Part shown: positions 35,394 through 52,932 of the stretch, piece by piece | How the letters are laid out: the number at the start of each line of letters is the position of its first letter | How positions within the stretch are numbered: position 1 is the stretch's first letter | Assembly: GCA_013289955.1 (NCBI GenBank) | Contig: JABCYZ010000007.1 | Coordinates: 186,001-250,000, forward strand | Source of the DNA: Acidobacteriota bacterium | GTDB lineage: Bacteria > Acidobacteriota > Terriglobia > Acidiferrales > UBA7541 | Reading direction: 5' to 3' | DNA: 64,000 nucleotides | The notes under the pieces: generated by a model | The model's input: the letters and a program-made list of their open reading frames with translations, nothing else | Database searches by the model: none | Told to the model about the DNA's origin: nothing | Position numbers and translations under genes: made by a program

Positions 35394-36266
35394 ATGCGGA
35401 TGGAATGGGGCCGAGCAAGGAGCAGGGTTGGACCGAGCATTCAGCCGGTGTACACCTACGTCCTCGTGCTCCTCTCCATCGTGGCAACTCTGGGAGTCCA
35501 AGGCTTTCGCCACGAGCGGGTCTGGACGCCCCTTGAACGACATTATTTTGGTGCTTATTCCGTCTCGCAGATAGCCGGTGTTGTTCGCGACAACGGCTGG
35601 TACACCCTGCTGCAAATAGTTACGCGTAAGGGGAGCCGATTGGCGCTGGACAGTGACGTGGTGCCTGTGGTTGCAGAAAGCGGGGAGAACACTTTCGCGC
35701 TCACTGAGGAAGCCTTGAAGCATGGCGCGATGCGCCTTGAATTCCGTCGTACTTATTGCAACAACTCCGAGATGCACGCCTACCTCGGCAACTGGATTTA
35801 TCAGAACCAAACCTTCATGGATCTTGTCCGGCCAGCTTTGTGGGCCGGGCTCGTTCTGTTCTTTGCGGGCCTGTTGCCGGCGACCTATCTGGACCGGAAG
35901 CGTTTTATTGGGTTGCGTTATGGGAAGAAACCAAGTGGCCCGAATTTGATGAATGTGGCGAAGCACAATCCCACGCACCGCTTCCGGGGCTTTGGCTTAG
36001 TGAACGGCAAACGCACGATGCTGGACAGACTGTTCAGCCTTGGCAAGAAGCTCCCTGTTCCACCACGCAAAGAGAATCCCCCCGTCCTGGTGCCGGTCGA
36101 GCCCGCGCCTCAGGAACCAGTCAGGAGAGCAGCCCCGAAAGCGGGAACAGATCGCGAGTTCCCATGGGGCACGCGACAGGAATCAGTGCAACAAGAGCAT
36201 ACGCCGAGTAAGGAAACAGAGTTGGAGCACGCCGTGAAGCCCACCACGAGGCGCTTTTTCGAATAA
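35394..36266 (+). CDS. Short membrane protein resembling the N-terminus of a type IV coupling protein
   Basis: This is a 290-residue protein with two membrane helices (residues about 19-37 and 147-166) separated by about 110 periplasmic residues. It continues with DRKRFIGLRYGKKPSGPNLM and HRFRGFGLVNGKRTMLDRLF. This layout and the GLRYGKxxSGPNLM segment resemble the membrane domain and start of the cytosolic domain of VirD4/TraD coupling proteins. The Walker ATPase part is absent: the protein runs into a Pro/Glu-rich tail and stops. It could be a truncated coupling protein or a dedicated adaptor. GGAG precedes the ATG, and the relaxase follows by 6 bases. Confidence 0.55.
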   Translation: MRMEWGRARSRVGPSIQPVYTYVLVLLSIVATLGVQGFRHERVWTPLERHYFGAYSVSQIAGVVRDNGWYTLLQIVTRKGSRLALDSDVVPVVAESGENTFALTEEALKHGAMRLEFRRTYCNNSEMHAYLGNWIYQNQTFMDLVRPALWAGLVLFFAGLLPATYLDRKRFIGLRYGKKPSGPNLMNVAKHNPTHRFRGFGLVNGKRTMLDRLFSLGKKLPVPPRKENPPVLVPVEPAPQEPVRRAAPKAGTDREFPWGTRQESVQQEHTPSKETELEHAVKPTTRRFFE

Positions 36267-36272
36267 AAGAAC

Positions 36273-39047
36273 ATGCTGACCATTTCCAAGCCTCTGAGTG
36301 CTGGTCAAGCACGCGCTTATCATCAGGAGGAGTTTAGCAACGCGCAGGAGAACTACTACAGCGAAGGCGACCGGATACGCGGTGAGTGGCACGGGAAATT
36401 GGCGGAGAAGTGGGGTCTGCATGGTGGCGTTCAAGAGGAACAATTTCGGCGGCTCAGCGACGGCCAACATCCGGTTAGCGGCAAGCAGTTGGTTCGCCAT
36501 CAGACGGCGCGTGAATACGTAGACGAGCAAGGCAAAACGGTCAAAACGATGGAGCACCGCGCGGGCTGGGATGCCACCTTCTCCGCGCCGAAAAGTATAT
36601 CGCTGACGGCGCTTGTGGGCGGCGATGAACGCGTACAGGAGGCCCATCGAGCCAGTGTGGGACTTGCGCTGGACGAAATGGAACGATACGTCCAGGCCCG
36701 GCTTGGAGGAAATCTTCCGCCGGAGACAACCGGAAATTGGGTCGCCGCAAAATTCGAGCACGATAGCGCGAGGCCCGTGAACGGTTATGCAGCCCCGCAG
36801 CTTCACACGCACGTGGTCTTCTTCAATCTGACAGAAACGCCCAATGGAGAAACACGTCCACTTCAACCTCAGGAACTCTACCGCACGCAGCAGTATGCCA
36901 CCGCCGTATATCGCTCAGAACTGGCGCACCGTTTGCAACAGTTGGGCTACGAGATCGAGCACGGCAAGAGCGGTCAACCGGAAATCAAAGGGTATAGCCG
37001 CGAGTATCTCGACGCTTCGAGTCCCCGCCGGAAACAGATCAAAGAGCATCTGGCGATGGAGAATCAGAGCGGTGCGGCCGCTGCGCAGATCGCCGCCCAT
37101 CACACGCGCGAGGCAAAGATTGGGCTCTCGCGTGAAGAGATGCAGCAGCGACACAAGGACATGGCAATTGAGTTTGGGGACCAGCCTCAGCACGTGACGG
37201 CGGGGGCCAAAGCAAGAGCACGTGACGTTGGCCAGGATGCGGGAAAGAAGATTGCACCCTCGGCTGTGACCTTCGCCAAAGAACGAAACTTCGAACGCGA
37301 TGCCGTAGCCGATGAGCGAGCCCTGCTGACCGATGCGCTCAGGCGCTCCATGGGTGGAGCGACATTGGCCGAGGTGAAAGCGAACTTCGAAGAGCGCATC
37401 AAATCAGGTGAATTCGTCGAAGTGCAAAGGAACGGCGACTCGCCCGACCGGGCGTTTACAACCACGGAGATGATCGGCTGCGAACGGGACACGGTGAATG
37501 CCATGCGCGCCGGACAAGATCGGCATGAGGCGCTAGTAAGTTTTGGCACTCGCTGGGCTATGCGGGATGCACATGGCCATCTGAGCGATACGCAATGCCG
37601 GGCTATAGAACAAATCTTGTCGAGTCGCGATCAAGTGACGGCGCTCGAAGGCGTGGCAGGCGCGGGCAAGACTACATCTCTTGCGGCGATCCGCGAAGCC
37701 GCCGAACGAGAGAACTACCTCGTCAAGGGGTTAGCGCCCACCTCTCGTGCTGCGCAGAAATTAGAAGAAAGTGGAATCAGATCGAACACTTTGCAACGGC
37801 ATCTTGCCCAAAGCTATGAAGGGCACGATGAACGAAAACGGCTGTACATCCTGGACGAATCGAGCTTGGCGAGCACGAGGCAAATGAACGAATTCCTCCA
37901 CCGGCTGCAGAAAGATGATCGCGTGTTGCTTGTTGGCGACACACGCCAGCACCAAGCCGTCGAAGCGGGCAAACCGTATCAGCAGTTGCAGGAAGCCGGA
38001 ATCCAGACGGCTCGACTGGACGAGATCGTTCGGCAGAAAGATCCGGCACTCAAAGAGGTTGTAGAAAAGCTCGCGCGAGGCCACGTCAATGAAGCGATGG
38101 AGAAACTCAATGCCGACGGCCGCGTGCATGAGATCTTCGATCGGGACGAGCGTATCGCTGTGATCGCGCATGAATATGCGAAGCAGCCCAAAGGCACGCT
38201 CGTCGTGTCGCCTGACAACCAATCGCGGATGGCTATCAACGAAGCGATCCACTATGCCATGCAGGATACGGACCAGATGCCGTACCTCGAACACCAGATG
38301 AGGGTGTTAGTCGCCCGGCAGGAGATCACGGGAGCAGATCGTCGGTGGGCCGCCCAGTACGAACCCGGCAATGTAGTGCGCTACGCTAAGGGCAGCAAGA
38401 CACTCGGCATTGCACCAGGCGAGTATGCGCACGTCAAAGGCGTTGATGAGAAACAGAACCACGTCACGATTGAACGGGCGAATGGCCAACGTCTGTGCTA
38501 CGACCCTCGCCGTTTGCAAGGCATGACGCTGTACCGAGGCGCAGAGCGGGCGTTCAGCAAAGGTGACCGCATACAGTTCACCGCTCCGAATCGAGACCAG
38601 CATGTTGCCAACCGTGAGCTGGGCACTATCGAGAAGATCGACCAAAGTGGCAACCTTCGAATCCGTCTCGACTCGGGACGTGCGCTCGCGTTCAACATTC
38701 GAGAGAATCCGCATCTCGACTACGGCTATGCGGTGACAAGCCACAGCAGCCAGGGGCAGACTGCTGACCGCGTGCTCATCCATATAGACGCCGAGCAGGG
38801 AGGAGAGAAGCTCGTCAATCGTCGCTTGGCATACGTCGCGGTATCGCGTGGCCGCTACGACGCGCAAATCTACACCAACGATAGAACCGCCCTTGCGGAA
38901 GGCCTCGGCCGCGATGTTTCACGCAGATCAGCGTTGGAGTCGGCACGCGCAGCAGAACAGCGGGTCGCTCAAAAGAGCGAGCCAACCTCTTCTCCAACTC
39001 TGGAGAGGGAACGAACAATCGAACGAGATCTCAGCCCTGGCCGTTAG
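36273..39047 (+). CDS. mobF: MobF-family relaxase-helicase (TrwC/TraI-like)
   Basis: This 924-residue protein nicks oriT and unwinds DNA for transfer. The N-terminal relaxase has the tyrosine pair in ENYYSEGDRIRGEWHGKLAE and the metal-binding His triad in APQLHTHVVFFN. The C-terminal RecD-like SF1 helicase has Walker A LEGVAGAGKTTSL, Walker B YILDESSLAS, GDTRQHQAVEAG, a DEIVRQ motif, and the late motifs VTSHSSQGQTADRV and YVAVSRGRYDAQIYTND. It appears complete. It follows the coupling-protein-like gene by 6 bases, ending the mobilization operon. Confidence 0.93.
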   Translation: MLTISKPLSAGQARAYHQEEFSNAQENYYSEGDRIRGEWHGKLAEKWGLHGGVQEEQFRRLSDGQHPVSGKQLVRHQTAREYVDEQGKTVKTMEHRAGWDATFSAPKSISLTALVGGDERVQEAHRASVGLALDEMERYVQARLGGNLPPETTGNWVAAKFEHDSARPVNGYAAPQLHTHVVFFNLTETPNGETRPLQPQELYRTQQYATAVYRSELAHRLQQLGYEIEHGKSGQPEIKGYSREYLDASSPRRKQIKEHLAMENQSGAAAAQIAAHHTREAKIGLSREEMQQRHKDMAIEFGDQPQHVTAGAKARARDVGQDAGKKIAPSAVTFAKERNFERDAVADERALLTDALRRSMGGATLAEVKANFEERIKSGEFVEVQRNGDSPDRAFTTTEMIGCERDTVNAMRAGQDRHEALVSFGTRWAMRDAHGHLSDTQCRAIEQILSSRDQVTALEGVAGAGKTTSLAAIREAAERENYLVKGLAPTSRAAQKLEESGIRSNTLQRHLAQSYEGHDERKRLYILDESSLASTRQMNEFLHRLQKDDRVLLVGDTRQHQAVEAGKPYQQLQEAGIQTARLDEIVRQKDPALKEVVEKLARGHVNEAMEKLNADGRVHEIFDRDERIAVIAHEYAKQPKGTLVVSPDNQSRMAINEAIHYAMQDTDQMPYLEHQMRVLVARQEITGADRRWAAQYEPGNVVRYAKGSKTLGIAPGEYAHVKGVDEKQNHVTIERANGQRLCYDPRRLQGMTLYRGAERAFSKGDRIQFTAPNRDQHVANRELGTIEKIDQSGNLRIRLDSGRALAFNIRENPHLDYGYAVTSHSSQGQTADRVLIHIDAEQGGEKLVNRRLAYVAVSRGRYDAQIYTNDRTALAEGLGRDVSRRSALESARAAEQRVAQKSEPTSSPTLERERTIERDLSPGR

Positions 39048-39469
39048 GCATACTCCAATTCGTAGCTCACGAAAATGTCATCGCAGGCGAAAAGCCTAAG
39101 AATCAGCGACATCCAGGTCGAATCCCAGTGACTGACGGTCAAAGAAGAAGGGGGCGTGTAGCGATGTTGCGTGGGCCCTGCAGTAGCTGTGATGGGCCAG
39201 ACGAAGCTTTCTGCAGACACGTGCAACACGCGAAGCCGTTGGGCCTAAGAACTGGTCCGCACCGATATCTAGGAAGATACAAGCTAAAAAAAGGGCCAAT
39301 ACCCGGTTCTCGAGGGAAATCTGCGCTTCGGGCGAATCTACAAACAACACTGCAATCTGGCGGTCCGATCATCCGGAGGACCAACGCCATTTTGCGTCGC
39401 CGCAAGAAACGTTTAGGTCGCAGGAAAGCTTTTTATCTTTTTATTCACACGATTATAAATCTAAGACTA
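39048..39469. other. Noncoding gap after the relaxase
   Basis: About 420 bases separate the relaxase from the promoter of the giant surface-protein gene. I see no supported gene, no convincing terminator and no tRNA. The last 80 bases are markedly AT-rich (runs of T and TTATTCACACGATTATAAAT), consistent with an upstream promoter element. Confidence 0.45.
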
Positions 39470-39498
39470 TTGACTCTGCCGAATAAGTGATGTATGAC
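39470..39498 (+). promoter_or_regulatory. Sigma-70-type promoter of the giant surface-protein gene
   Basis: TTGACT (39470-39475) and TATGAC (39493-39498) are separated by 17 bases and preceded by an AT-rich stretch. The coding start is at 39626, giving a leader of about 120 bases. Confidence 0.5.
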
Positions 39499-39625
39499 GC
39501 ATCTACTGCGTGGTATCTCATCTTCACATTCGGTTGTTTTCTAGCATCTCGAGTTCGGCGAGTTATCAGTAGTCGGAGAGACGGCTGCTTTGCTCGTGAG
39601 TGGAAAGCCTGGGAGGGTGGTTCTT

Positions 39626-42600
39626 ATGCGTGTGCAAAGCTGGAAGTCGATTCCTTTCCTTGCGGTTTCTTTTTTGTTCTTCACGGCGATTGAAACTCGG
39701 GCTGCGGCACCCACCATAACGAGTCTGTCCCCGACTTCCGGAGCTGTCGGGGCTTCGGTCACGATTACGGGTACGAATTTCGGTTCGTCTCAAGGCAGCA
39801 GTACGGTGAAGTTCAATGGTACTTCCGCTACTGCGGCTAGTTGGAGTGCGACGAGTATCGTCGCGGCAGTTCCTACGGGTGCCACGACAGGGAACGTCGT
39901 GGTGACAGTTTCTGGTACGGCTAGCAATGGGAAGAGCTTCACAGTTGTTTCGGCGCCCAGCATTACCAGTCTCTCTCCAACCACAGGAGCGGTTGGAGCC
40001 TCTGTGACGATCACGGGGACGAACTTCGGATCGAGTCAGGGTTCTGGAACAGTGAAGTTCAATGGGACGACAGCCACGGTGACGAGTTGGAGCGCTACGA
40101 GTATTGCGACAACGGTTCCGAGCGGGGCTACGACGGGAAATGTGGTGGTGTTTGCCAGCGGAGTGAACAGCAGTGGGAAGAGCTTCACAGTTGTGTCAGC
40201 GCCGAGCATCACCAGCCTCTCGCCGACCACAGGGGCGGTTGGGGCGGCGGTGACAATCACAGGAACGAACTTTGGGTCGAGCCAGGGTTCGAGCACGGTG
40301 AAGTTTAACGGGACGACAGCGACGGTGACGACCTGGAGTGCGACGAGCATTGTTACAACGGTTCCGAGTGGAGCGACGACGGGAAACGTCGTGGTGTTTG
40401 CCAGTGGAGTGAACAGCAACGGATCGAGTTTCACCGTAGTATCAGCGCCGAGCATTACGAGTCTCTCAAAGACCTCCGGAGCTGTGGGCACTTCGATAAC
40501 AATCACAGGGACAAACTTTGGATCGAGCCAGGGTTCGAGCACGGTGAAGTTTAACGGGACGACAGCGACAGTGACGACTTGGAGTGCAACGAGCATTGCC
40601 ACTACTGTTCCGAGTGGAGCGACGACAGGAAACGTGGTGGTGTTTGCCAGCGGAGTGAACAGTAACGGGTCGAGCTTCACCGTGGTTCCGAATATTACGA
40701 GCCTATCACCTACCACGGGCGCAGTTGGGGCATCGGTGACAATCACAGGCACTACCTTCGGGTCAACACAGGGAACCAGCACAGTGAAGTTTAACGGGAC
40801 GACAGGAACGCCGACGAATTGGAGCGCTACAAGTATCGTGGTGCCAGTGCCCAGCGGGGCCACCACAGGGAATGTGGTGGTCACAGTGTCGAGTCAGGCG
40901 AGCAACGGGATCAGCTTCACGGTGGTGTCGGCCCCGAGCATAACCAGCCTCTCACCGACCACAGGGGCGGTTGGGGCGTCAGTGACGATTACGGGGACAA
41001 ACTTTGGATCGAGCCAGGGTTCGAGCACGGTGAAGTTCAACGGCACAGCAGGAACGGTGACAAGTTGGAGCGCAACGAGCATCGCCACAACTGTTCCGAG
41101 CGGAGCGACCACCGGGAACGTGGTGGTGTTTGCCAGCGGAGTGAACAGCAACGGATCGAGTTTCACCGTGGTATCAGCGCCGAGCATTACCAGCCTCTCG
41201 CCGACTTCAGGAGCGGTTGGAACGCCCGTAACAATTACGGGGACGAACTTCGGATCGAGCCAGGGTTCGAGTACGGTGAAATTCAATGGAACGACAGCAA
41301 CGGTGACGACCTGGAGTGCGACGAGCATTGCCACAACGGTTCCAAGCGGGGCGACGACGGGGAATGTGGTGGTGGTTGACAGCGGAGTGAACAGCAACGG
41401 ATCAAGTTTCACTGTGGTCTCAGGGCCAAGCATTACCAGCCTCTCACCGACATCAGGAGGGGCTGGAGCGGCCGTGACGATTACGGGGACGAATTTCGGA
41501 TCGAGCCAGGGTTCGAGTACGGTGAAATTCAATGGAACGACGTCGACGGTGACAAGTTGGAGCGCGACGAGTATTGGGACAATGGTTCCGAGTGGAGCGA
41601 CGACGGGGAACATCGTAGTTACTGTGGGAGGAGTGCCAAGCAACGGGTCTAGCTTCACAGTGGCGGCACTTGCGAGTCTTTCGGTAACGCCACAGAATTC
41701 CACCATCTTGGCCGGGAACACTCAACAATTTACTGCTACGGGCACCTATTCGGATAACAGTACGCAAAATCTGACAGCTACAGCGACGTGGACTTCGTCG
41801 GCAAGCGCTGCTGCGACGATCAATAGTTCAGCATTGGCAACCGCCGTAGGACCGGGACAAACGACGATCCAAGCGTCGGTGGGAAGCATCCAAGGCTCCG
41901 CCCTGCTAACTGTGTCGGGTTTTGCTTTAACCGGGAGCCTGAACACCGCGCGAAATGACCAAACGGCTACGTTGCTGAATAACGGCACTGTTCTCGTAGT
42001 TGGAGGGGACGACATCAATGGTAACGCCCTGGCCAGCGCAGAGCTCTATAACCCAGCGACGGGATCTTTCACGACCACAGGAAGCCTCAATACAGCCCGT
42101 ATAAATGACACTGCCACTCTGCTGGACGACGGCACCGTTCTGTTTGCTGGAGGTTCCGACTCCAACGGAAATCTACTCTCAAGCGCAGAAATTTACAATC
42201 CAGCGACAGGAGTCTTCACAGTAGCCACAGGGAGCCTTGTCACGCCTCGCGCAAACCACACAGCTACGCTCCTCGGCAACGGCATGGTGCTACTGGTTGG
42301 CAGTGCCGACAGCAGCGGAAACGTGTCCGGCTCAGCTGAGATCTACAACGCGGCTACGCAATCGTTTACGGGAACCGGCAGTTTGAATACAGCCCGAGGC
42401 CTGCAAACCGCGGCACTTTTGAATAACGGAACCGTGCTGATTTTGGGAGGAGGAGCAAATGGCAGCGTCCTGGCCAGCGCGGAATTATACAACGTTGGGT
42501 CCGGCACTTTCACTGCTACAGGGAGTCTAAATACAGGACGTGTCCAAAACACCGTAACTCTTTTGAACAGCGGGTCAGTTCTGGTCGCCGGAGGGTCAGA

Positions 42601-45600
42601 CATTAATGGGAATGCTCTCGCCACCGCGGAGCTGTACAACCCCACGACCATGACGTTCACTCCAACGGGCAGCTTGAACACAGCACGTGGCGATCATGCT
42701 GCGACCTTACTAAACAACGGGACGGTGCTAGTTGAGGGTGGTTACACCAGCTCGGCGGATATGACCGCAAGCGCCGAGCTCTATGATCCGGTGGCAGCCA
42801 CATTCAGTCCAACGGGTAGCCTAAACGTGGCGCGCCAAGTACAAACTGCGACTTTGCTCGTGAACGGTGCTGTATTGGTAGCCGGCGGATTCAGCGACAG
42901 CCCCCGTGCCTTGTCTAGCGCAGAATTATATGAGCCGGCATCGTTTGTTCCAACTAATCTCGTGTCGATCTCTCTTAGCCCTCTCAATTCTTCGATTCCG
43001 GCAGGAACACCGCAGTCCTTTATTGCGACCGGGACATTCAGCGACAACAGCACACAAACTTTGGCCTCCGTTGCGTGGAGCTCCTCGAACACACCTGTCA
43101 TCACCATGTCGAACGATTCAGGAAATCGCGGTGTTGCTTTGGGCTTGGCCGTCGGCTCTGCAACGATAAGTGCATGCGCTGGAACGATCTGCGGCTCCAC
43201 AGCTATCACAGTTGTTCCCGCCGACCCAATCATCACGACTTTGACGCCGAACGCCGGGCCAGTGGGCGCTTCCGTTTCCATTGCGGGTACAGGCTTCGGA
43301 ACGCTTGAGGGCCCCAGCACGGTTACGGTTGACGGAATCACAGCGATAGTTAACACATGGAGCCCCACAACCATCAATGCAGTGGTGCCCGCCAGCGCGA
43401 CAACGGGCAACACCATCGTTTATGTCGATGGGGTGAACAGCAACCTGGTACAGTTCACGGTTCTTCCAACACCATTTATCTCGAGTGTCTCTCCGACGAG
43501 CGGCGATCTTGGATCGGCGGTTGAAATCGACGGCTCAAGTTTTGGAGATACACAGGGCAGCAGCACCGTTACTGTGAACGGCACGGGACTTACCATAATA
43601 AACTGGTCGGCCACATCCATTACTGGAACGATTCCGACTGGTGCGACAACTGGAAACGTGATCGTCACGGTTGGGGGCGTAGCGAGTGATCCAGTGGTTT
43701 TTACTGTTGCTAATGTGCCCGCGATATTCAGTTTATCGCCGCCGTTAGGTCCTGCCGGAACTGTGGTCACCATCGCGGGGGCCGACTTCGGACCAACCCA
43801 GGGAACCAGCACAGTCGCGTTCAATGGAATCGTGGCAAGCGTCACCAATTGGAGTTCCGCGAGCGTTACTGCAATCGTGCCCACAGGCGCCACTACGGGC
43901 CCTGTTGTAATGAACATTGCCGGAACGCTCAGCAACGGTACCGTTTTCATTACCCCTGGACCTCCGAACGTTTCAAGTCTGTCTCCGGCAACGGCGCCAA
44001 TAGGCTGGCCGGTTACGATCATTGGGACAAATTTCGGGGCGACTCAGGGTACGAGCACAATCTCGTTTAACGGCACTTTGGCGACCGCCACGAGTTGGAG
44101 TCCGACACAGATTGTTACGACAGTTCCATCCGGGGCGACGAGCGGAATTGTGACAGTGACGGCTTCAGGTGTAACTGGAACGGCGGCGTTTTTCAATGTG
44201 TTCACCGGGGTTGCCATCACCAGTTTTTCGCCAACAAGCGGTGATGTAGGCAATGGCGTAAATATTCAAGGGTCGAACTTTGGCGCTACGCAAGGCTCAA
44301 GCACAGTCGCATTCAATGGAACATTGGCGAGTGTGGCGTCTTGGAGTGATCAACAAATTCAGGTTCTCGTACCGAATGGAACAAGTACCGGTAATCTGGT
44401 GGTAACTGTCTACGGTATTGCGACGAATGCTGGAGCGTTCACGTTGGTTCCAACCCCTGTAATCTCGTCCATCTCACCAGCCTCGGGAGTGGTCGGTACC
44501 TCCATTACGATTTCAGGTTCACATTTTGGCGCGAGCCAAGGAGGCGGGGGAGTTCAATTTCCCGATTTAGACATTGGTGGATACGCTCCGGTGACAAGCT
44601 GGAGTGACACCACGATAGTGCTTCCAGTCCCTGCAGGCCGAGCTTTCTCCGGGAACGTGTTCGTCCGGGCCAGCGAGGGGCTATTTCAATCAACCGGGCC
44701 AAGTAATCAGGTGTTCTTCACGGTTCTTCCGAGCATCAATAGTTTGTCTCCAGCTTTAGGTACGGTTGCTACTTCGATTCAGATCAACGGCACCGGCTTT
44801 GGATTTGACCAGACGACAGGTACAGTCACCTTCAACGGCGTGGTAGCGAACCCGACTTCCTGGAGTCCTACACAAATCGTTACCTATCCGCCCGTAGGAG
44901 CAACCAGCGGGAATGTAGTAGTGACTGTGAGTGGAAACGCGTCACTAGGCACGAACTTCGCGTTGCAACCCGGACCTGCGATATCGAGTCTTTCTCCAAC
45001 GAATGGCGTAGCAGGAACCTCGATCACGATCACTGGTACTGGATTTGGAAGTCCCCAAGGTTCGAGCACGGTCACATTTAATGGAACGTCTGCGACACCG
45101 ACAGCATGGACCGCAACCAGCATTACTGTTCCCGTGCCGACAGCAGCGACCACGGGGAACGTCGTGGTGACGGTCGGCGGAGTGGCAAGTGAAGGAGTGA
45201 ATTTTACTCTAGACCCTGCGCCGGCAATCAGCAGCCTCTCGCAGACCTCCGGTTCGGTGGGAACTGCAATCACGATCTCCGGTTCCAATTTTCTCGACAC
45301 CCAAAGCTCGAGCACGGTCACATTCAATGGAACCGCTGCGACTCCTACCTTTTGGAGCGCGAACTCGATCGGAGTGAATGTCCCAACCGGAGCAACCACT
45401 GGAAATGTCGTTGTCACAGTTTTGGGACATGCGAGTGCAGGAGTGAGATTCACGCTCACAAGCGCTCCGAACATTAGCAGTCTGTCGCCAACCACCGGGC
45501 CTGCCGGAACACTCGTAACCATCAACGGATCAAATTTTGGGTCCACACAGGGTACTAGTTTCCTAACATTCAATGGTGTTCCAGTCACGCCAACGAGTTG

Positions 45601-48600
45601 GGCTTCCGGGAGAATCACTGCGGCCGTTCCCGAGGGCACGACAACCGGGCCTGTAGTCGTTACCGTGAACAATGGACCAAGCAACAACTCCACCTTTACG
45701 GTGACCGCCGGGCCTGGCATCACTGGGATTTCTCCGGCGAGCGGTGGAATCGGTGCAACGGTTACGATTACCGGTGCGGCGTTCGGTTCGAGTCAGGGTT
45801 CAAGCACCGTCAAGTTCAATGGCACTACCGCAGTACCCTCTCTCTGGAGCGATACGGGGATTGTCGTGCCAGTTCCGACAGGAGCAACGACGGGAAATAT
45901 TGTTGTGACTGTCGGAGCGCCGAGCAATGGCGTGAGCTTCACAATCTCTTCTGGCCTAAGCGTCACGACGGTGAGTCCAACTTCGGGAAACACTGGAAAC
46001 GCCGTCGTGATAACCGGCACGGGATTCGGTACGACTCAGGGCGGCAGCACGGTGACATTTAACGGAGCGACGGCCACCGTCATTTCGTGGAGCAACACCT
46101 CCATCGTGACTTCCGTGCCAGCGGCCGCGATATCCGGACCAGTGGTCGTAACTGTGGGCGGTGCATCAAGCGATGGGATTTATTTCACGGCACAGCCGCA
46201 GATTCTTGGAATTTCGCCTAATCCGGCTGCTTTGGGAGCGAATGTCACAATTACAGGGGAAAATTACGGGGCCGCCCAGGGTGTCAGCGTCATTTCTTGC
46301 GGTGGCACTTCACAGTTTGTCAGCAGCTGGAGTCAATCCAGTATTACGCTGCAAGGGTGCATCTCAGCGGCAGGCCAAATTCCAATACAAATCACTGTCA
46401 ATGGAGTTGCCAGCCTTCCGGCCATCATCCAGGGAATACCTGCACCGACGATTTCTGGAGTGGCTCCTAACACGGCACCGGTCGGAGCTGCGGTTCTGAT
46501 TCGGGGGGCGAACTTCGGTTCGACCCAAGGGCAGAGTTCAGTCACGATCGATGGGGTCGCAGCTCCAATGCTAAGCTGGTCCAATTCAGGGATCGTCGTT
46601 TCCGTTCCATCCGTGGCATCTGGTCTCGCAACGATTACTGTCACTGTGGGTGGCATACCCGCGAGCCTCTCAAACGTGCTAGAAATAGGGACATTGCCGG
46701 CGCCGACAACACTACAAATCACACCCTCCGGCGTTAACCTTTTGATTGGTAGCACCAAGCTCTTTAACGTGGTGGACAATACTGGTAAGGCACGCTCCGA
46801 TGCCACGTGGTCTGTCGACAACACAAGCCTCGCGACTATCGCCACGAATGCTTCGCCTTTAACGGGCAACTCGGCCCTACTCACGGCAATTGCGGCTGGC
46901 ACCGTCACTCTAACGGCAACGGTGCAAGGTATGAGCGCAGAGATGCCGGTAACAATCTCGTCTGCGGTCTCGTTTCCGGCTGGCACGGTACTTTGGTCCG
47001 CGCCTCCAGTTAGTGGTTTTTCGCCCTCACAGATCGCACAAGCCTTACCCAGTGATTTTGGGCCCAATGCGTACTCCATCCAGAAGAACAGTAGCGGCAC
47101 ACAGACTTTGGTTCAAGCATTCACAGCGGGACAGATGTTGTGGCAAACCACGGTGCGTGCACTGGCTTCTAATGCTGTTCCAGATGGCTTCGGAGGACTC
47201 CTGGTGACGGAAGTCTGCGATGCCACGAATAATCTGCCGATGGATATCATCGATCTCGACGGCGTTACAGGTGCCTCAGTATGGACGGCCACTGTCGCGC
47301 AGCCGACGAATGGTGCTTGCCCGCTGGGAGCGCCGAAACTGGCTATTCGGCAAGATGGTGCTGTCGTCATTGCTAATCCTTTGCAGGTATCGCCGGCGCT
47401 GGTGATTCTTGACGGGCCGTCTGGAGGCGTTTTGCCGACACCGACGATCCCCGGTTCCACATTGATTAACGCCATGGGGCAGCCACAGACCTGCGACTGC
47501 TTTACGCCGGTAGGTCAACCCATCGTGGACTCCGGTGGCTCTATTTACGTTGGCTACGAAACGCGGGAAATTCCTTCAACAAGCGCGATGTCAAGCGTTC
47601 TCTCGCTTTTGACGATCGGCATCGACGGCTCGACAGCAACCACGCAGCTAAGTTCTTCCACTGGCGCGAATCTATTTCCAGGGAACATTATCCCCGACGG
47701 GCAAGGTGGTGCGCTTGTTACATGGACCATTGCAAACGCCAATCCGCCTGCAGCTGCGCAGCCGTACGAAGCGGCGTACGTATCCGGTGGAGCTGTCATA
47801 GCTGCTTACCCATTACCCAACGCTCCGACGACGCTGAATACTGGGAGCGACGGCTTGCCAATCAACCCACCGCTCCTTCTGGGGCAAAATGCCGCGGCTG
47901 TCGCTTCTTACGGTTCGAACCTGACCTCCTTCAACCTCAATCTGGGCTCGGCCAATTGGAATTATCAAGCGCCAGGACAAGACATCCTCACACCGGTGGA
48001 GCTTACCTCCGACGGAGGTCTCACGATAAATGACTCTGTTGCGGGTGCGGTCCAATTAGACCCCAATGGGAATGTCTTGGGGAGCGCCCCCTATTTGCAG
48101 GGAGCGTCTCCGTTTTCGCTGTTTACGTGGGTGGGACTAACGAATGGTGTCTTTGGTGAAATACTTAGCCCGAGCGGCTCAAACGCGATTGTTAACACAC
48201 TTCTTGAGTCTCCATGGCCGGCACCGGAAGGCGATCCACAAAGTCAGCACCAACCGCCATATTGCGCAAGAGCGAATTCTCACTGTGTAATCGCTCCACA
48301 CTCCGACATTTCCACGATAGATGCGTTTTCGGGAGCCCCGTTAAGAGAAGTGGAATATGATGTGCTCTCGCTTCAGAATGGCGTGCTATCTCCAATCGAT
48401 TTAACGACTATCCAGCAAGTAAAGATGTTCGTGTTCGAGACGAATCCGACGAACTCCGCTACGATCATATGCAGCCAACAACTTATTCTGGGAGGTGGAT
48501 GCCAGAGTCCAGTCCCCAATTGCAATCCAGCCGCAGGATCTTTTTGTTTTTCCCCAGGCGTTTACATTGACGACTACTCAGCGAGGAACACGGGCCCGAA

Positions 48601-48838
48601 CACGGTCACGCAACAGTTCTTCATAGACAGGTGGCTTGTTGGGGTGTACTGGCCACAAAAGGCTTCTGATGGAAACGTTTATTGGTATGGGGCGTACTCA
48701 CAAACTGCTGGGGTCAACAGAGCCACTATTCCGCAAGGAGCGCTAATCATCCAGGTTAATCCTGACCTACAACATGCCGCTAGTTGCCCGAGAGGGTGCT
48801 CCTTCACGAAGGCGGACGGAACCCAGTTGCAGCCCTGA
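39626..48838 (+). CDS. Giant secreted surface protein: 22 IPT/TIG repeats, kelch propeller and C-terminal propeller
   Basis: This is a 3,070-residue protein. A signal peptide (residues 1-28, ending ETRAAAP) is followed by eight nearly identical 82-residue IPT/TIG repeats (SLSPTTGAVGASVTITGTNF type). Next come a BIG2-like domain (about 685-765), seven kelch units of the form GSLNTARxxxTATLLNNGTV (770-1111), another BIG2-like domain, fourteen diverged IPT repeats (about 1198-2355) and a third BIG2-like domain. The protein ends with a PQQ-like propeller region (about 2450-2855) and a Cys-containing terminal domain. The ATG at 39626 follows GGGAGG. It is likely a secreted or surface adhesin or carbohydrate-binding scaffold, and no anchoring signal is recognised. 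Confidence 0.85.
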   Translation: MRVQSWKSIPFLAVSFLFFTAIETRAAAPTITSLSPTSGAVGASVTITGTNFGSSQGSSTVKFNGTSATAASWSATSIVAAVPTGATTGNVVVTVSGTASNGKSFTVVSAPSITSLSPTTGAVGASVTITGTNFGSSQGSGTVKFNGTTATVTSWSATSIATTVPSGATTGNVVVFASGVNSSGKSFTVVSAPSITSLSPTTGAVGAAVTITGTNFGSSQGSSTVKFNGTTATVTTWSATSIVTTVPSGATTGNVVVFASGVNSNGSSFTVVSAPSITSLSKTSGAVGTSITITGTNFGSSQGSSTVKFNGTTATVTTWSATSIATTVPSGATTGNVVVFASGVNSNGSSFTVVPNITSLSPTTGAVGASVTITGTTFGSTQGTSTVKFNGTTGTPTNWSATSIVVPVPSGATTGNVVVTVSSQASNGISFTVVSAPSITSLSPTTGAVGASVTITGTNFGSSQGSSTVKFNGTAGTVTSWSATSIATTVPSGATTGNVVVFASGVNSNGSSFTVVSAPSITSLSPTSGAVGTPVTITGTNFGSSQGSSTVKFNGTTATVTTWSATSIATTVPSGATTGNVVVVDSGVNSNGSSFTVVSGPSITSLSPTSGGAGAAVTITGTNFGSSQGSSTVKFNGTTSTVTSWSATSIGTMVPSGATTGNIVVTVGGVPSNGSSFTVAALASLSVTPQNSTILAGNTQQFTATGTYSDNSTQNLTATATWTSSASAAATINSSALATAVGPGQTTIQASVGSIQGSALLTVSGFALTGSLNTARNDQTATLLNNGTVLVVGGDDINGNALASAELYNPATGSFTTTGSLNTARINDTATLLDDGTVLFAGGSDSNGNLLSSAEIYNPATGVFTVATGSLVTPRANHTATLLGNGMVLLVGSADSSGNVSGSAEIYNAATQSFTGTGSLNTARGLQTAALLNNGTVLILGGGANGSVLASAELYNVGSGTFTATGSLNTGRVQNTVTLLNSGSVLVAGGSDINGNALATAELYNPTTMTFTPTGSLNTARGDHAATLLNNGTVLVEGGYTSSADMTASAELYDPVAATFSPTGSLNVARQVQTATLLVNGAVLVAGGFSDSPRALSSAELYEPASFVPTNLVSISLSPLNSSIPAGTPQSFIATGTFSDNSTQTLASVAWSSSNTPVITMSNDSGNRGVALGLAVGSATISACAGTICGSTAITVVPADPIITTLTPNAGPVGASVSIAGTGFGTLEGPSTVTVDGITAIVNTWSPTTINAVVPASATTGNTIVYVDGVNSNLVQFTVLPTPFISSVSPTSGDLGSAVEIDGSSFGDTQGSSTVTVNGTGLTIINWSATSITGTIPTGATTGNVIVTVGGVASDPVVFTVANVPAIFSLSPPLGPAGTVVTIAGADFGPTQGTSTVAFNGIVASVTNWSSASVTAIVPTGATTGPVVMNIAGTLSNGTVFITPGPPNVSSLSPATAPIGWPVTIIGTNFGATQGTSTISFNGTLATATSWSPTQIVTTVPSGATSGIVTVTASGVTGTAAFFNVFTGVAITSFSPTSGDVGNGVNIQGSNFGATQGSSTVAFNGTLASVASWSDQQIQVLVPNGTSTGNLVVTVYGIATNAGAFTLVPTPVISSISPASGVVGTSITISGSHFGASQGGGGVQFPDLDIGGYAPVTSWSDTTIVLPVPAGRAFSGNVFVRASEGLFQSTGPSNQVFFTVLPSINSLSPALGTVATSIQINGTGFGFDQTTGTVTFNGVVANPTSWSPTQIVTYPPVGATSGNVVVTVSGNASLGTNFALQPGPAISSLSPTNGVAGTSITITGTGFGSPQGSSTVTFNGTSATPTAWTATSITVPVPTAATTGNVVVTVGGVASEGVNFTLDPAPAISSLSQTSGSVGTAITISGSNFLDTQSSSTVTFNGTAATPTFWSANSIGVNVPTGATTGNVVVTVLGHASAGVRFTLTSAPNISSLSPTTGPAGTLVTINGSNFGSTQGTSFLTFNGVPVTPTSWASGRITAAVPEGTTTGPVVVTVNNGPSNNSTFTVTAGPGITGISPASGGIGATVTITGAAFGSSQGSSTVKFNGTTAVPSLWSDTGIVVPVPTGATTGNIVVTVGAPSNGVSFTISSGLSVTTVSPTSGNTGNAVVITGTGFGTTQGGSTVTFNGATATVISWSNTSIVTSVPAAAISGPVVVTVGGASSDGIYFTAQPQILGISPNPAALGANVTITGENYGAAQGVSVISCGGTSQFVSSWSQSSITLQGCISAAGQIPIQITVNGVASLPAIIQGIPAPTISGVAPNTAPVGAAVLIRGANFGSTQGQSSVTIDGVAAPMLSWSNSGIVVSVPSVASGLATITVTVGGIPASLSNVLEIGTLPAPTTLQITPSGVNLLIGSTKLFNVVDNTGKARSDATWSVDNTSLATIATNASPLTGNSALLTAIAAGTVTLTATVQGMSAEMPVTISSAVSFPAGTVLWSAPPVSGFSPSQIAQALPSDFGPNAYSIQKNSSGTQTLVQAFTAGQMLWQTTVRALASNAVPDGFGGLLVTEVCDATNNLPMDIIDLDGVTGASVWTATVAQPTNGACPLGAPKLAIRQDGAVVIANPLQVSPALVILDGPSGGVLPTPTIPGSTLINAMGQPQTCDCFTPVGQPIVDSGGSIYVGYETREIPSTSAMSSVLSLLTIGIDGSTATTQLSSSTGANLFPGNIIPDGQGGALVTWTIANANPPAAAQPYEAAYVSGGAVIAAYPLPNAPTTLNTGSDGLPINPPLLLGQNAAAVASYGSNLTSFNLNLGSANWNYQAPGQDILTPVELTSDGGLTINDSVAGAVQLDPNGNVLGSAPYLQGASPFSLFTWVGLTNGVFGEILSPSGSNAIVNTLLESPWPAPEGDPQSQHQPPYCARANSHCVIAPHSDISTIDAFSGAPLREVEYDVLSLQNGVLSPIDLTTIQQVKMFVFETNPTNSATIICSQQLILGGGCQSPVPNCNPAAGSFCFSPGVYIDDYSARNTGPNTVTQQFFIDRWLVGVYWPQKASDGNVYWYGAYSQTAGVNRATIPQGALIIQVNPDLQHAASCPRGCSFTKADGTQLQP
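39710..41662 (+). repeat. Eight tandem ~246-bp coding repeats
   Basis: Eight consecutive IPT/TIG-encoding units of about 246 bp share long identical DNA stretches (for example the GGATCGAGCCAGGGTTCGAG block). The fourteen IPT units further downstream are clearly diverged at DNA level. This contrast points to recent expansion or gene conversion in the first block and predicts length variation between strains. Confidence 0.8.
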
Positions 48839-48847
48839 GGTGTTTTG

Positions 48848-49600
48848 ATGAAACGGGTTTTAAAAATATTTCTGTACATCGGGTCAGGATTCTTCCTGAT
48901 GGTATTCCTTGCCGAGGCCACATTCTATATTGAAAATATGAGAGTCCGTCGGAGGGGTGAAGAGCTCCTGGGCGCAATTCGTCATTTGCAAGTTGGCGAA
49001 TCCACCTTGTCTTCTACCGAAGCCCTTCGGACGCAGTTCGGGGCGCAAAAATTGGTTGTCTCACGCACTTCTGGGCTGCCGCCTGAGCAACGCTTCCAGA
49101 TACTTTTGTCAAACTACTTGCTCAACAATCTCAGGTTGCGTTTTCCAAATCTTTGGGCTTTCGGCCTACGACCGGCTGCCGTCGAACTAGAGTTGAGGTA
49201 CGAAGACCAGAAGCTAACCGAGCTGATTTACATGGTTCACACTCCAGTAATTACAGATTCCGGCGGACCTATTGAGCTAGTTGCCAGCATGGCTATCGCG
49301 GCGAGCCAGGGCATCGATGCGCCTCCCAATTCTGGCCTTCTCTATCGCGTCCAACCGAGCTCGCTCATGGCCAAGGCTCGGGAACTACGGATTGGCGAAG
49401 TGCTCACTCGAAGCGCCCCACAAGAAGACCGAGCGGCTGCTTTCGATTTCGATCTCCACTGCGTCTCTAGCTTTAGGGGCTGCTATGCTTTCTGCCAAAT
49501 CTTGCCTTCCGTCTGGCGGGAAGCGTTGCGCAGATATGAGAACAAGCAAATATCGCTGCCCAAAGAAGTGTTGGAAAATTCTGGATGCGCTACGCACTAG
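48848..49600 (+). CDS. Membrane-anchored hypothetical protein
   Basis: This is a 250-residue protein with an N-terminal membrane anchor (residues about 5-25, LKIFLYIGSGFFLMVFLAEA) and a periplasmic or extracytoplasmic remainder with several cysteines near the C-terminus (DLHCVSSFRGCYAFCQILPS). I do not recognise the domain. It starts 9 bases after the giant surface-protein gene, so the two are probably cotranscribed and it could help its export or anchoring, which is inference. A TTG precedes the ATG in frame. Confidence 0.6.
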   Translation: MKRVLKIFLYIGSGFFLMVFLAEATFYIENMRVRRRGEELLGAIRHLQVGESTLSSTEALRTQFGAQKLVVSRTSGLPPEQRFQILLSNYLLNNLRLRFPNLWAFGLRPAAVELELRYEDQKLTELIYMVHTPVITDSGGPIELVASMAIAASQGIDAPPNSGLLYRVQPSSLMAKARELRIGEVLTRSAPQEDRAAAFDFDLHCVSSFRGCYAFCQILPSVWREALRRYENKQISLPKEVLENSGCATH

Positions 49601-49827
49601 AGACTTGGGGTCCTCAGCTGCCCAAACGTTATATCTGAAAAATGTTGGGACAGGCACCACAGTTGCCGGCCTATTTGCACAAAACTCTCAGGTGGGTGCT
49701 TTAGCGTCCTATCAGCCGACTCCACAAAGCGGGCCCGATCGTCACGGTTTTATTCGCCGGCGCTCCGTGGTTGACCCGGGCCGTAACTTCAATTCCTCAA
49801 ATTCCGTGGGTAAGTATGGGAGACGCC

Positions 49828-50402
49828 ATGATTAACTTTGGACGTATATCGCCGATGAGGTTATTAGGGGTCGTGACTATCTGAGTGTATGCCACAGCCA
49901 CTGGAGTGATTACTCAAAACAGTTTTCCGCCAGATATCCGCACACTCATGGAGCAGCTTAACGATCCGCATGCTGGTCACGCTGACACGTTAATGCAAAT
50001 TGTCGTGGTTTCAGAAAGGACCCTGCGACACGGCAGTTCGTCGTGGAGAAATTACCGGATTTGATTCGTGGCCCCGAATCAGACTTGTGGCTCGATGCCA
50101 TTCGCCTTGCGGGCAAATTGAAGGCAGCGGAGGCCGTGCCGGCATTACAGGAAGCTATGTCACGGCCCCCGGTTCCTGCCGAGGCTTACATCACCTTTGC
50201 TGGTTTAGAACGGCTCGACAATGATATTGTCGCGAAGACGCTCTCCCAAATCGGGGAGCCTGCAATTCCTGCCGTTACATCTCTGCCGAAGAGCAAAGAT
50301 TCCCGCATGCGGTATCGCGCAATATTGATCCTCAGAAATATCGGGTCACTCTCAGCCCGCAAGGCGCTGGAGAATCAGCGGTCCCTTGAGAGCAACCCGT
50401 AA
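49828..50402 (+). pseudogene. HEAT-repeat protein broken by a stop codon and a frameshift
   Basis: The frame starting at ATG 49828 encodes a short signal-like start (MINFGRISPMRLLGVVTI) and meets a TGA at 49882-49884. It continues in the same frame as VYATATGVITQNSFPPDIRT, LMEQLNDPHAGHADTLM, up to VSE. At the AAAGG tract (about 50015-50019) the reading shifts by one base to KDPATRQFVVEKLPDLIRG and helical HEAT-like units (LWLDAIRLAGKLKAAEAVP, MRYRAILILRNIGSLSARK), ending at 50402. Restoring one A joins the frames perfectly. The intact ancestor was a small exported HEAT-repeat protein. A GTG at 50043 could still give a 119-residue product. Confidence 0.65.
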
Positions 50403-51220
50403 AACGTCAAACTAATCGGGGAGAGTTTACGGCCCTAGAGTTGTTCTGCTTCAATCCGCCCGACACGCAGCGTCTTCTCCCGCCGCATGACCCATCCCGA
50501 TCAACTTCTCGAGACGGTCAGGTTCAGACGCTTACGAATATCGCGTTGAAAGCCCGGCTCCTTTCGCCTGCCAAGGCGCGATGGTCGATGACTACGCACA
50601 ATTAACCCAGTTGTTTGGACTTTCAACGAGCAGGTGTAATTTTACGTTCAGCGCCGGCGCTGCCGCGAGGATGCTCGACGAAAGCGCACAGCCACCGCGC
50701 CTATGTCCACACTCTCCCAACTCCGTGTACCCGGCGTGTACCTCAGTTGGGCGACTTCGATGTTTTTGGCGTTTTTCGCGATTAATGGAATCAATAATTT
50801 GCGCGTTTTCAACGTCGCTTTTAGTTCGATCCCCACCGCCCCATCGGCAAAGCATGGTGTCCGATGCCCCAATCGCGGGGCCGGCAAGCAACGTCGGTCA
50901 ATATCTACGCGGAATAGTTTCATCTTTGTGACTCTTTTTCCCTAAGGACCGCGCCTAAGCTCCGCGCGTCACTTGACTCTCACATGCTTTACTCGGCGCA
51001 ACATAGGCCGTAGTCCGCTCCCACTGTAAAGCCCGCTTGTGCAGCTCCGCTCGGTAATACCCCAACCGTGCTCGCTTCCGCGCCCCTCCGGGCTGCGCTG
51101 AAATGTGCTTCGGGGCTTGACAGCCGCGAACCACGGCCAGAACCCGCCTCCAGTAAAGCATGTTGTTTTTTGTGCCCTGAAAGGGCGACACAACAGCAAA
51201 TCAAAACTGGAGCGCATACG
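50403..51220. other. Long gene-poor stretch containing one copy of a dispersed repeat
   Basis: About 820 bases without a supported gene. The segment 50730-50841 is related to 57680-57793. Short frames elsewhere in the stretch lack ribosome sites and protein-like composition. An imperfect hairpin (TGTGCCCT/AGGGCGACACA, about 51169-51193) lies just before the ArdC-like gene and could be regulatory. Confidence 0.45.
50730..50841. repeat. Dispersed ~110-bp direct repeat, copy 1
   Basis: The sequence from GTGTACCTCAGTTGGGCGA through GTTTTTGGCGTTTTTCGCG to TCAACGTCGCTTTTAG aligns along its whole length with 57680-57793 at roughly three quarters identity, in the same orientation. Function unknown. 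The pair brackets about 7 kb of cargo. Confidence 0.6.
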
Positions 51221-52177
51221 ATGCCTAGCGTCTACGAAATCATCACCGAGAAAATCATCAAGCAGCTTGAATCCGGCGTGGCTCCTTGGCGCAAGCCCTG
51301 GACCTCTCAGACTCCCGCAAACCTGATCACGCAAAAAGAGTATCGCGGACTCAACGTCTTTACTCTTGCTTCTCAGGGGTTCCCATCACGATTCTGGCTT
51401 ACTTTCAATCAGGCAACGAAACTGGGCGGGAGGATTCGCAGGGGCGAGAGGTCTTCGCCCGTCATCTTCTGGAACGTTGGCGAAGAGGAGGAAACGACTA
51501 CGCAGGACGGCACGAAAGAGAACTCGCGGCCTTTCCTGCTCCGTTATTATAGCGTGTTCAATTTGTCGCAGACGGAAGGAATCGACATTCCCGCATCCCT
51601 TCTGCAGGAGACGCGCACCAACGATCCCATCGAAACGTGCGAACAGATCGTGACGAATATGCCGAACCCGCCAGCGTTCGAGCAATCCGACATAGCGTGG
51701 TACTCACCAAGCAACGATGTGGTGGGCATGCCAGCACGCGGACTCTTTCATTCATCGGAAGAATTTTACGCCACCGAATTCCACGAATTGGCTCACAGCA
51801 GCGGACACGCAAAGCGCTTGCACCGGGAGAACTTCGACAACCCGGTTTCCTTTGGCTCGGAATCCTACTCGAAAGAGGAACTCATCGCGGAGATGACCGC
51901 CGCCATGCTCTGCGGCATCGCGGGAATCGAGCAGCGGATTCTTGAAAACTCCGCCGCTTATCTCAAGACGTGGATTGCACGGCTTAAGTCTGATTCGCGG
52001 TTGCTTGTTTCCGCCGCATCGCAAGCCCAAAAAGCCGCCGACTTTATCCAGGGCAAACTTGCGCGTCAGGAAGGCGAAAGGCAACCCGTGGGCGTAGACG
52101 ACATCAAAGGCGATCCTTCCCTCACCAATACACTGCAACGGCATAGGTTCGTGGGGCATAAATGCATTTCCGCGTGA
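51221..52177 (+). CDS. ardC: ArdC-like antirestriction protein (ssDNA-binding domain plus zincin)
   Basis: This is a 318-residue protein starting MPSVYEIITEKIIKQLESGV APWRKPW (first 20 given plus the next seven). This is the ArdC N-terminal single-strand-DNA-binding domain (DUF1738), continuing with YRGLNVFTLASQGFPSRFW. The C-terminal metallopeptidase-like domain carries FHELAHSSGH, with two His and a Glu of a zincin site, and SYSKEELIAEMTAAMLCG, with the third ligand Glu. ArdC proteins protect incoming mobile DNA from host restriction, which fits an IME. The ATG at 51221 follows GGAG. Confidence 0.85.
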   Translation: MPSVYEIITEKIIKQLESGVAPWRKPWTSQTPANLITQKEYRGLNVFTLASQGFPSRFWLTFNQATKLGGRIRRGERSSPVIFWNVGEEEETTTQDGTKENSRPFLLRYYSVFNLSQTEGIDIPASLLQETRTNDPIETCEQIVTNMPNPPAFEQSDIAWYSPSNDVVGMPARGLFHSSEEFYATEFHELAHSSGHAKRLHRENFDNPVSFGSESYSKEELIAEMTAAMLCGIAGIEQRILENSAAYLKTWIARLKSDSRLLVSAASQAQKAADFIQGKLARQEGERQPVGVDDIKGDPSLTNTLQRHRFVGHKCISA

Positions 52178-52228
52178 CAGGGAGCAATACGTAACTTAAA
52201 CTTAGGGGGTAAGCTGGAAAAGTATCTC

Positions 52229-52504
52229 ATGACGCTTGACGTTAAGCCCAAAATCGCCGCCGCACTGGAAGCCCTAGCTTCTGCCAAAGGGTTGTCTGTG
52301 GAAGACTACCTTGAGCAACTCGTGGAAAAAGAGCTGCCGCTCAAGCTGGAAGATTCCACCCGTTCGGAGGGCAGTGGCATGGTTTGGGAAAACGGGCTAT
52401 TTGTCTACCGTACCGGCAGACCCCTGCCATTGCGCGTAGTCGATGATGCTATCCGCCAAGTCCGCGAAGAAAGGGCGCAGCACATCCTGGGCAAGCATTC
52501 TTGA
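52229..52504 (+). CDS. Antitoxin-like protein of a VapBC-type pair
   Basis: This is a 91-residue protein with a helical N-terminus (DVKPKIAAALEALASAKGLS VEDYLEQ) typical of short RHH/VapB-like antitoxins, and a C-terminal tail (VVDDAIRQVREERAQHILGK) that would wrap the toxin. It overlaps the start of the PIN-domain gene (TTG/TGA overlap at 52501-52504), the usual coupled arrangement. It presumably neutralises the toxin and represses the operon. Confidence 0.7.
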   Translation: MTLDVKPKIAAALEALASAKGLSVEDYLEQLVEKELPLKLEDSTRSEGSGMVWENGLFVYRTGRPLPLRVVDDAIRQVREERAQHILGKHS

Positions 52505-52932
52505 AGCTGTTCTTCGACAGCTCTGTTCTGGTTCCGGTTTTTTACGCTGACCATCCGCAGCATGCAACTAGCACAAAATTATTCCTAGCCGCGGGAAAAG
52601 ACGATTTCTGTGCGCTTCGCACGCTCGGCGAGGTCTACGCTACGCTCACTGGCCTGCCACTTCGGCCCCGCATCACCGGGCCGGAGGGCATAAGCATCGT
52701 AAAGCAGATACGCGAAAGGCTCACTCTGATTACTCTCAGTGAACAGGAATATGTTTCCGCTCTTGAGCTGGCTTCCTCTGAGACCATCGTCGGTGCAGCT
52801 GCATATGATGCACTTATTGCTCATTGCGCTCTGTAGGCCGGCGCAGTTACTTTGCTGACCTGGAACGTCCGCGATTTCACAAGGTTCGGACCTGCTATCG
52901 CACGGCTCGTTAAGACGCCGCTGGAACTGTAG
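52501..52932 (+). pseudogene. vapC: PIN-domain (VapC-type) toxin interrupted by an in-frame TAG
   Basis: From the TTG at 52501 the protein begins LKLFFDSSVLVPVFYADHPQ with the first PIN aspartate, and continues to AAYDALIAHCAL, where a TAG stands at 52834-52836. The same frame continues without any shift as AGAVTLLTWNVRDFTRFGPA IARLVKTPLEL (stop 52930-52932), the normal end of a PIN domain with the last acidic residue (WNVRDF). A single base change (for example AAG to TAG) would explain it. The toxin is probably inactive unless the stop is read through. Confidence 0.75.

What the first reader, a model, noticed from the sequence alone, without database searches (positions are those of the whole stretch)
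39710..46690. Giant IPT/TIG protein with eight near-identical repeats and fourteen old ones
Seen: the first eight 246-bp units share long identical DNA blocks, while the later fourteen IPT units are strongly diverged. Inferred: recent expansion or gene conversion at the membrane-distal or N-terminal end, which predicts length variation (phase-like surface variation). The combination of IPT arrays, BIG2-like domains, a seven-unit kelch propeller and a C-terminal propeller in one 3,070-residue protein on an IME is unusual.
Basis: partly seen in the sequence, partly recalled or inferred. Interest (0 to 1): 0.58.

Follow-up and report, generated by a model that had tools for sequence, protein, structure and literature searches.

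The report
Mobile giant protein with swappable tail
A mobile DNA element in an uncultured soil acidobacterium carries a giant exported protein built of Ig-like repeats and two propellers; its repeats are less alike than first thought, while its end piece is swapped between relatives together with a matching small neighbour gene, which suggests a modular weapon-and-immunity system that has not yet been tested.

Summary
The array is real: 22 TIG domains (8 + 14), three Big_2, a seven-blade kelch stretch and a propeller-like module in one ~3,070-aa exported protein. It sits on a 28.4-kb integrative element bounded by tRNA-Met and an exact 48-bp direct repeat. 'Near-identical' is too strong: units 1-8 share 65-87% of bases with heavy synonymous divergence; only units 2-4 and 6-8 are clearly younger. 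Unit number differs between five family members (5-12), but is constant (7 and 7, one-to-one) in two slot-sharing relatives, so phase-like variation is unsupported.

What varies most is the C-terminus. Eight proteins share the Big_2-propeller trunk (28 of 28 pairs aligned, 26-45%), yet only 2 of 28 pairs share a tail, and the same two pairs share the small gene just downstream. One relative carries an orphan tail cassette behind a 344-bp, 94%-identical arm. Giants of the same domain make-up follow the same relaxase in elements of two other species. Best reading: a polymorphic effector with cognate partner, carried by mobilizable elements. Toxicity and immunity are untested.

The parts
31531..59911 (.). 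integrative mobilizable element, from tRNA-Met 3' part to the distal repeat
   Evidence: exact 48-bp direct repeat 31531-31578 / 59864-59911, tRNA-Met 31502-31578, integrase and relaxase inside
31655..32839 (-). tyrosine integrase
   Evidence: PF00589 E 1.4e-22; 95% identical copy beside tRNA-Met in G035
35394..36266 (+). N-terminal stub of a TrwB-type coupling protein, without the ATPase domain
   Evidence: 33% identity over residues 1-233 to the 660-aa coupling protein of G034:C35, which has PF10412 E 7.5e-83; the stub has no Pfam match
36273..39047 (+). TrwC/MOBF relaxase-helicase
   Evidence: PF08751 E 9.5e-85
39626..48838 (+). giant TIG/Big_2/kelch/propeller protein (open frame from 39590)
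39710..41671 (+). TIG units 1-8 (N-zone, homogenised)
41672..43225 (+). Big_2 - seven-blade kelch - Big_2 insert between the two TIG arrays
   Evidence: Pfam Big_2 and Kelch; blades read
43226..46687 (+). TIG units 9-22 (diverged; units 14-22 pair one-to-one with paralog B units 12-20)
46688..48085 (+). trunk module: Big_2 plus PQQ/BamB-like propeller
   Evidence: Pfam Big_2 E 2.2e-5 and PQQ_2 E 1.2e-5 (the latter just under its cut-off); AF2 pLDDT mostly 60-90 for residues 1-466; Foldseek BamB E about 1e-7 with weak TM-scores
48086..48835 (+). variable C-terminal tail, shared only with G076 among 8 family members
   Evidence: fold not resolved
48848..49600 (+). tail-linked partner gene, 250 aa, one N-terminal hydrophobic segment
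   Evidence: starts 9 bp after the giant's stop; homolog directly behind the same tail type in G076, E 4e-16
51068..52177 (+). ArdC-type antirestriction protein
   Evidence: PF08401 E 1.1e-31, PF18818 E 2.4e-31

Best explanation
The protein is the window's member of a family of giant exported proteins with a constant N-terminal and middle part (TIG arrays, Big_2, kelch) and a Big_2-propeller trunk that carries an exchangeable C-terminal tail. The tail is encoded together with a tail-specific small membrane-anchored or exported partner gene. I propose that it works like a polymorphic toxin: the TIG/kelch part is a long surface stalk that binds and spaces, the tail is the effector released onto or into neighbouring cells, and the partner protects the producer's envelope from that tail. 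Carriage next to the relaxase of a mobilizable element would make cells with the element win over cells without it, or tie the host to the element. Shown here: architecture, element boundaries, tail exchange, tail-partner co-variation, tight gene coupling, an orphan cassette. Inferred: surface display, delivery, toxicity, immunity, benefit to the element.
For: Trunks align in 28 of 28 pairs of 8 proteins (26-45%), but tails match in only 2 of 28 (A-G076 E 4e-22, G033-G083 E 1e-54). Among the same eight, exactly these two pairs have homologous downstream genes (E 4e-16 and 1e-21); the only other match is between a G036 partner and one of its own orphan-cassette genes, 3e-6. A's closest trunk (G083, 45%) has a different tail, its tail sharer G076 only 35% trunk identity. 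In 8 of 8 tails examined a small gene starts -16 to +37 bp from the stop and has an N-terminal hydrophobic segment; background 14 of 142 genes, Fisher p 6e-8. G036 has an orphan cassette: 344 bp at 93.9% identity to the trunk end, then another metzincin-like tail and another partner. Giants with TIG+Big_2+kelch lie 575-580 bp behind the same relaxase in the window, G034 and G035, with ends that differ. RHS-repeat genes share this setting: one follows the relaxase in G034:C40, and paralog B is followed by a gene with RHS-like repeats, read by eye. A partner homolog in G110 lies near an RHS-like gene and other short tail-like frames (read by eye).
Against: No activity is shown. The window's own tail has no recognised family, and its fold was not resolved (pLDDT under 50). 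The protease readings of other tails rest on sub-threshold Pfam hits (Reprolysin E about 0.004) and on motifs I recognise from memory. Of four further homologs of the partner found, G076 is behind the tail; G079 and G187 stand without a giant gene, so the partner family is not confined to this system. Its model resembles YbjN and type III chaperone folds only weakly (Z up to 5.6), which would fit a chaperone as well as an immunity protein. Secreted proteases with inhibitors or chaperones would give the same gene pattern. The trunk/tail border was set by me at the end of the modelled propeller.
Confidence: 0.48

Rival explanations
1. Modular extracellular adhesin/enzyme: the TIG, kelch and propeller domains bind polymers or cell surfaces, the tails are matrix-acting enzymes (proteases), and the downstream genes are anchors, inhibitors or chaperones for folding. 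No antagonism.
For: Metalloprotease-like HExxH motifs in two tail classes; TIG-like domains in solved glucanotransferases and other sugar-active enzymes; weak chaperone-like fold of the partner.
Against: Does not by itself explain why the partner changes class with the tail, nor the orphan cassette behind a 94%-identical arm.
Confidence: 0.27
2. Mating aid: like plasmid-borne high-mass Ig-like (Big) proteins that bind pili and flagella and raise conjugation (PMC8730810), the giant promotes mobilization of the element by holding cells together.
For: Giants of the same make-up 575-580 bp behind the same relaxase in three species; published precedent for Ig-like proteins in transfer regions (abstract and sections 11 and 13 read).
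Against: Homologs also lie away from any relaxase match, such as paralog B on contig 3 (one relaxase match in the genome at the cut-off). Related relaxase loci in G023 and G035:C54 lack it. The element encodes no recognised transfer channel among the frames scanned; VirB4-like matches lie on other contigs. Tail exchange is not predicted.
Confidence: 0.14
3. N-terminal repeat array as a contingency or phase-like surface variation system.
For: N-zone units are homogenised within proteins and differ in number between family members, 5-12; G017 units 2 and 5 are 96% identical in DNA.
Against: Array 1 units are only 65-87% alike with high synonymous divergence, longest exact repeat 47 bp; slot-sharing giants in G034 and G035 keep 7 units each, one-to-one.
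Confidence: 0.06
4. Passive cargo: a large exported-protein gene picked up by chance, with no role tied to the element.
For: Many giants of this kind are in other genomic places.
Against: Same slot and spacing in three species' elements; the frame is open over 9.2 kb and pN is far below pS in array 1.
Confidence: 0.05

Closest known systems
Polymorphic toxin systems (Rhs, CdiA, WapA types)
   Same: constant trunk, exchangeable C-terminal tail, tail-specific small downstream gene, orphan cassette with a homology arm
   Different: no Rhs core, no two-partner transporter recognised; trunk is Big_2 + propeller behind TIG arrays and kelch; tail toxicity and partner immunity untested
Plasmid Big proteins RSP/RSP2 of IncHI and their IncA/C counterparts (PMC8730810)
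   Same: very large exported Ig-like proteins coded with transfer genes of mobile elements
   Different: those plasmids are MOBH, with their own pilus genes; here a MOBF-type relaxase on an element without a recognised channel; TIG plus propellers; variable tail
NF047769 LIC10067 and NF058597 CoaZ repeat proteins (NCBIfam)
   Same: TIG-type repeats match both models far above cut-off
   Different: the models name repeats only and cover neither trunk nor tail
Teneurin-like bacterial proteins (PDB 9ifo, 9pt5)
   Same: a Big_2-type domain matched by the trunk profile, E about 1e-5
   Different: only that domain matched; no YD shell in the window protein

Membership tests
Polymorphic toxin system | homologous trunks carry non-homologous C-terminal tails | tested here: met
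   28 of 28 trunk pairs align, 2 of 28 tail pairs match
Polymorphic toxin system | each tail class has its own downstream partner | tested here: met
   8 of 8 tails examined have a coupled small gene; among the eight proteins, partner homology only in the two tail-sharing pairs
Polymorphic toxin system | orphan tail cassettes with a trunk homology arm | tested here: met
   G036, 344 bp at 93.9% identity; seen in one relative, not in the window
Polymorphic toxin system | tail is toxic and partner neutralises it | not testable with these tools
   needs expression tests
Polymorphic toxin system | known trafficking domain or secretion route | tested here: inconclusive
   signal-peptide-like start read; Pfam, NCBIfam and PADLOC show no transporter-linked domain in the giant
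TIG (PF01833) protein | TIG domains above the curated cut-off | tested here: met
   22 stretches, E 2e-213
Integrative mobilizable element | integrase, att repeats at a tRNA, relaxase, no own conjugation channel | tested here: met
   channel absence judged from Pfam of 20 frames between 30036 and 63071, shorter frames not scanned
Plasmid Big mating protein (RSP type) | binds conjugative pilus or flagella and raises transfer | not testable with these tools
   experiment needed
Phase-variable repeat protein | repeat number differs among strains | not tested
   no second strain was available; between-species data only

The most novel reading that the evidence does not exclude
Mobilizable elements of Acidobacteriota carry, next to the relaxase, a new class of polymorphic antagonism system: giant TIG/kelch stalks with a Big_2-propeller trunk that presents exchangeable protease-like effector tails, each with a cognate envelope-anchored immunity protein, so that the element polices neighbouring cells that lack it and recombines its warheads through a conserved propeller arm.
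Probability: 0.3. Interest if true: 0.75.

Novelty: new variant of a known kind. Interest (0 to 1): 0.56.

Why it matters
Giant Ig-repeat proteins are common in soil bacteria and are usually annotated only by their repeats. If the tail-partner logic holds, many of them are modular effector carriers, and their spread on mobilizable elements gives a testable reason for their abundance. The two-zone repeat pattern (homogenised N-zone, fixed distal block) also gives a clean natural case of concerted evolution inside a single gene.

Tried and rejected
Recent slippage or gene conversion in array 1: synonymous divergence too high and no tract survives correction. Named relatives of the C-terminal module: the first genome-contig scan found none; the second, with array 1, gave TIG arrays from many phyla (441 relatives, 80 kept) but none of the 80 loci holds the relaxase. 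Plasmid records: 24 with weaker TIG matches, all under 60% identity. A tail match in G119 lies on the strand opposite a 706-aa frame with a stop inside, rejected as spurious. G035's giant has its own Big_2-propeller end and is one of the 8 proteins; a 233-aa GTG frame 27 bp downstream is an uncertain partner and was not counted among the 8 of 8. The eight tails count G036 twice (main gene and cassette 2). PDB sequence search with the G083 tail: nothing at E up to 1. PADLOC: nothing for the giant or the partner. Paper searches: a mobilizable-element search on Acidoferrum and a search on TIG domains in Acidobacteria gave 0 papers each; a broad search gave only off-topic papers; two searches gave nothing on this family as far as the listings show. 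Paper use: PMC8730810, abstract and sections 11 and 13 read; other papers seen only in search listings.
Full report
What is there. The window is G000:C7:186001-250000 of a 6.5-Mb, 60-contig genome. Its genus is that of G033, whose contig C97 has the same length (47,967) as a record titled Candidatus Acidiferrum typicum RYN_23; this naming is an inference from length. The open frame 39590-48838 most likely starts at ATG 39626 with a signal-peptide-like start. Pfam gives 22 TIG stretches, kelch motifs and three Big_2. Order: TIG 1-8, Big_2, seven kelch blades, Big_2, TIG 9-22, Big_2, a PQQ/BamB-like propeller, and a 250-aa tail. The propeller is supported by a Pfam hit just under its cut-off and by a middling model (pLDDT mostly 60-90 in that part; weak TM-scores to BamB and other propellers).

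The repeats. Units 1-8 share 65-87% of bases (mean 75) and 83.5% of residues on average; units 9-22 share 49% and 44%. At sites with the same residue the codon is the same in 0.49 of cases in array 1, 0.32 in array 2; random codon draws give 0.30-0.31. Array 2 is therefore saturated, array 1 is younger, and units 1 and 5 are old (0.28-0.46 against the other seven). A second protein of the same family in the same genome (B, contig 3, L001) has 24 units with the same split: units 1-5 alike, the rest not. A15-A20 and B13-B18 are each other's best match in order, and the tree extends this to A14-A22 and B12-B20, with support from 0.20 (one pair) to 0.99. In five family members 30 of 36 N-zone units are nearest to a unit of their own protein, against 13 of 55 distal units; the zone limits (8, 5, 12, 5, 6) were set by me. 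This is concerted evolution in the N-zone and a fixed order behind it. Against rapid length change: in G034 and G035 the first array has 7 units each, paired one-to-one at 77-99%.

The element. tRNA-Met 31502-31578 and an exact 48-bp direct repeat at 59864-59911 bound 28.4 kb with an integrase, a TrwC-type relaxase and ArdC. A 290-aa protein ahead of the relaxase matches the first part (about 233 residues) of a coupling protein and lacks its ATPase domain. The relaxase has matches in 27 of 151 genomes at E up to 1e-30. I read the context of 35 related relaxase loci plus the window. Of the eight loci with 84% or more identity to the window relaxase (window included; 84% rounding, G035:C57 at 83.98), one (G035:C150) ends about 1 kb downstream; of the other seven, three carry a TIG + Big_2 + kelch giant as the next gene (window, G034:C150, G035:C92; spacing 579, 580, 575 bp), one carries an RHS-repeat gene (G034:C40), one has an RHS-like fragment read by eye (G035:C57), and two have neither (G023:C20, G035:C54). 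A further giant lies about 6 kb from a 70%-identity relaxase fragment in G017:C371. The G034 and G035 giants are 65% identical over about 1,290 residues and then part; A matches G035 at 60% over A 123-1373. G034 and G035 may be one lineage, so the three cases are not fully independent.

The tail. The Big_2-propeller module recurs in few genomes: 9 of 399 in a class-wide sample, at E up to 1e-8. I compared eight proteins (window, G083, G217, G033, G036, G013, G076, G035), cutting at the end of the modelled propeller. All 28 trunk pairs align at 26-45%; only A-G076 and G033-G083 share tails at significant E (other hits had E 0.4 or more). HExxH motifs stand in the tails of G036 and G013, and a His-Gly/Cys pattern that I recall as caspase-like in G083 and G033. 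Small genes with an N-terminal hydrophobic segment follow 8 of 8 tails examined (seven proteins plus G036's cassette 2) at -16 to +37 bp, against 14 of 142 other genes of 400 aa or more (Fisher p 6e-8). Partner homology among the eight is limited to the same two pairs. In G036 a second cassette repeats 344 bp of trunk at 93.9% identity, followed by another tail and another partner.

How it most likely works. Shown: modular trunk, exchanged tail, co-varying partner, mobile context. Inferred: the giant is exported and stands on the surface, the TIG and kelch parts reach and bind, the tail acts on other cells, and the partner, held at the envelope, protects the producer. Rivals: an extracellular enzyme with chaperone or inhibitor, a mating aid like plasmid Big proteins (PMC8730810), a contingency array, or passive cargo. 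The partner's weak likeness to YbjN and type III chaperone folds (Z up to 5.6, below the level the tool calls meaningful) and its homologs in places without a giant keep the chaperone reading open.

Verdict.

Noticed in passing
35394-36266: Coupling-protein stub: only the N-terminal ~230 residues of a TrwB-type protein remain; frames of 288-309 aa stand ahead of the relaxase in six further loci of the closest relaxase group, so a short form seems kept.
   Followed up: partly
L127 (G146:C2): A frame of 1,217 aa covers the relaxase and reaches about 0.97 kb further, so the relaxase there may be fused to another domain.
   Followed up: no
L113 (G035:C54): In a related element the relaxase is followed at some distance by a 1,213-aa frame whose start looks SIR2-like by eye, perhaps a defence gene in the same cargo zone.
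   Followed up: no
55479-56651: Trypsin-like protease on the element, matching protease parts of PADLOC models (RT-Protease_XI E 2.8e-20).
   Followed up: no
L001:12579-17001: The gene after paralog B reads (by eye) as kelch-like and then RHS-like repeats; kelch and TIG parts seem shared between one- and two-gene versions of the family.
   Followed up: partly
L064 (G017:C371): Family member with 12 N-zone TIG units, two of them identical in protein and 96% identical in DNA: the best place to look for recent repeat change.
   Followed up: no
L065 (G141:C5): A 4,777-aa open frame with 20 TIG units in another family of the same class.
   Followed up: no
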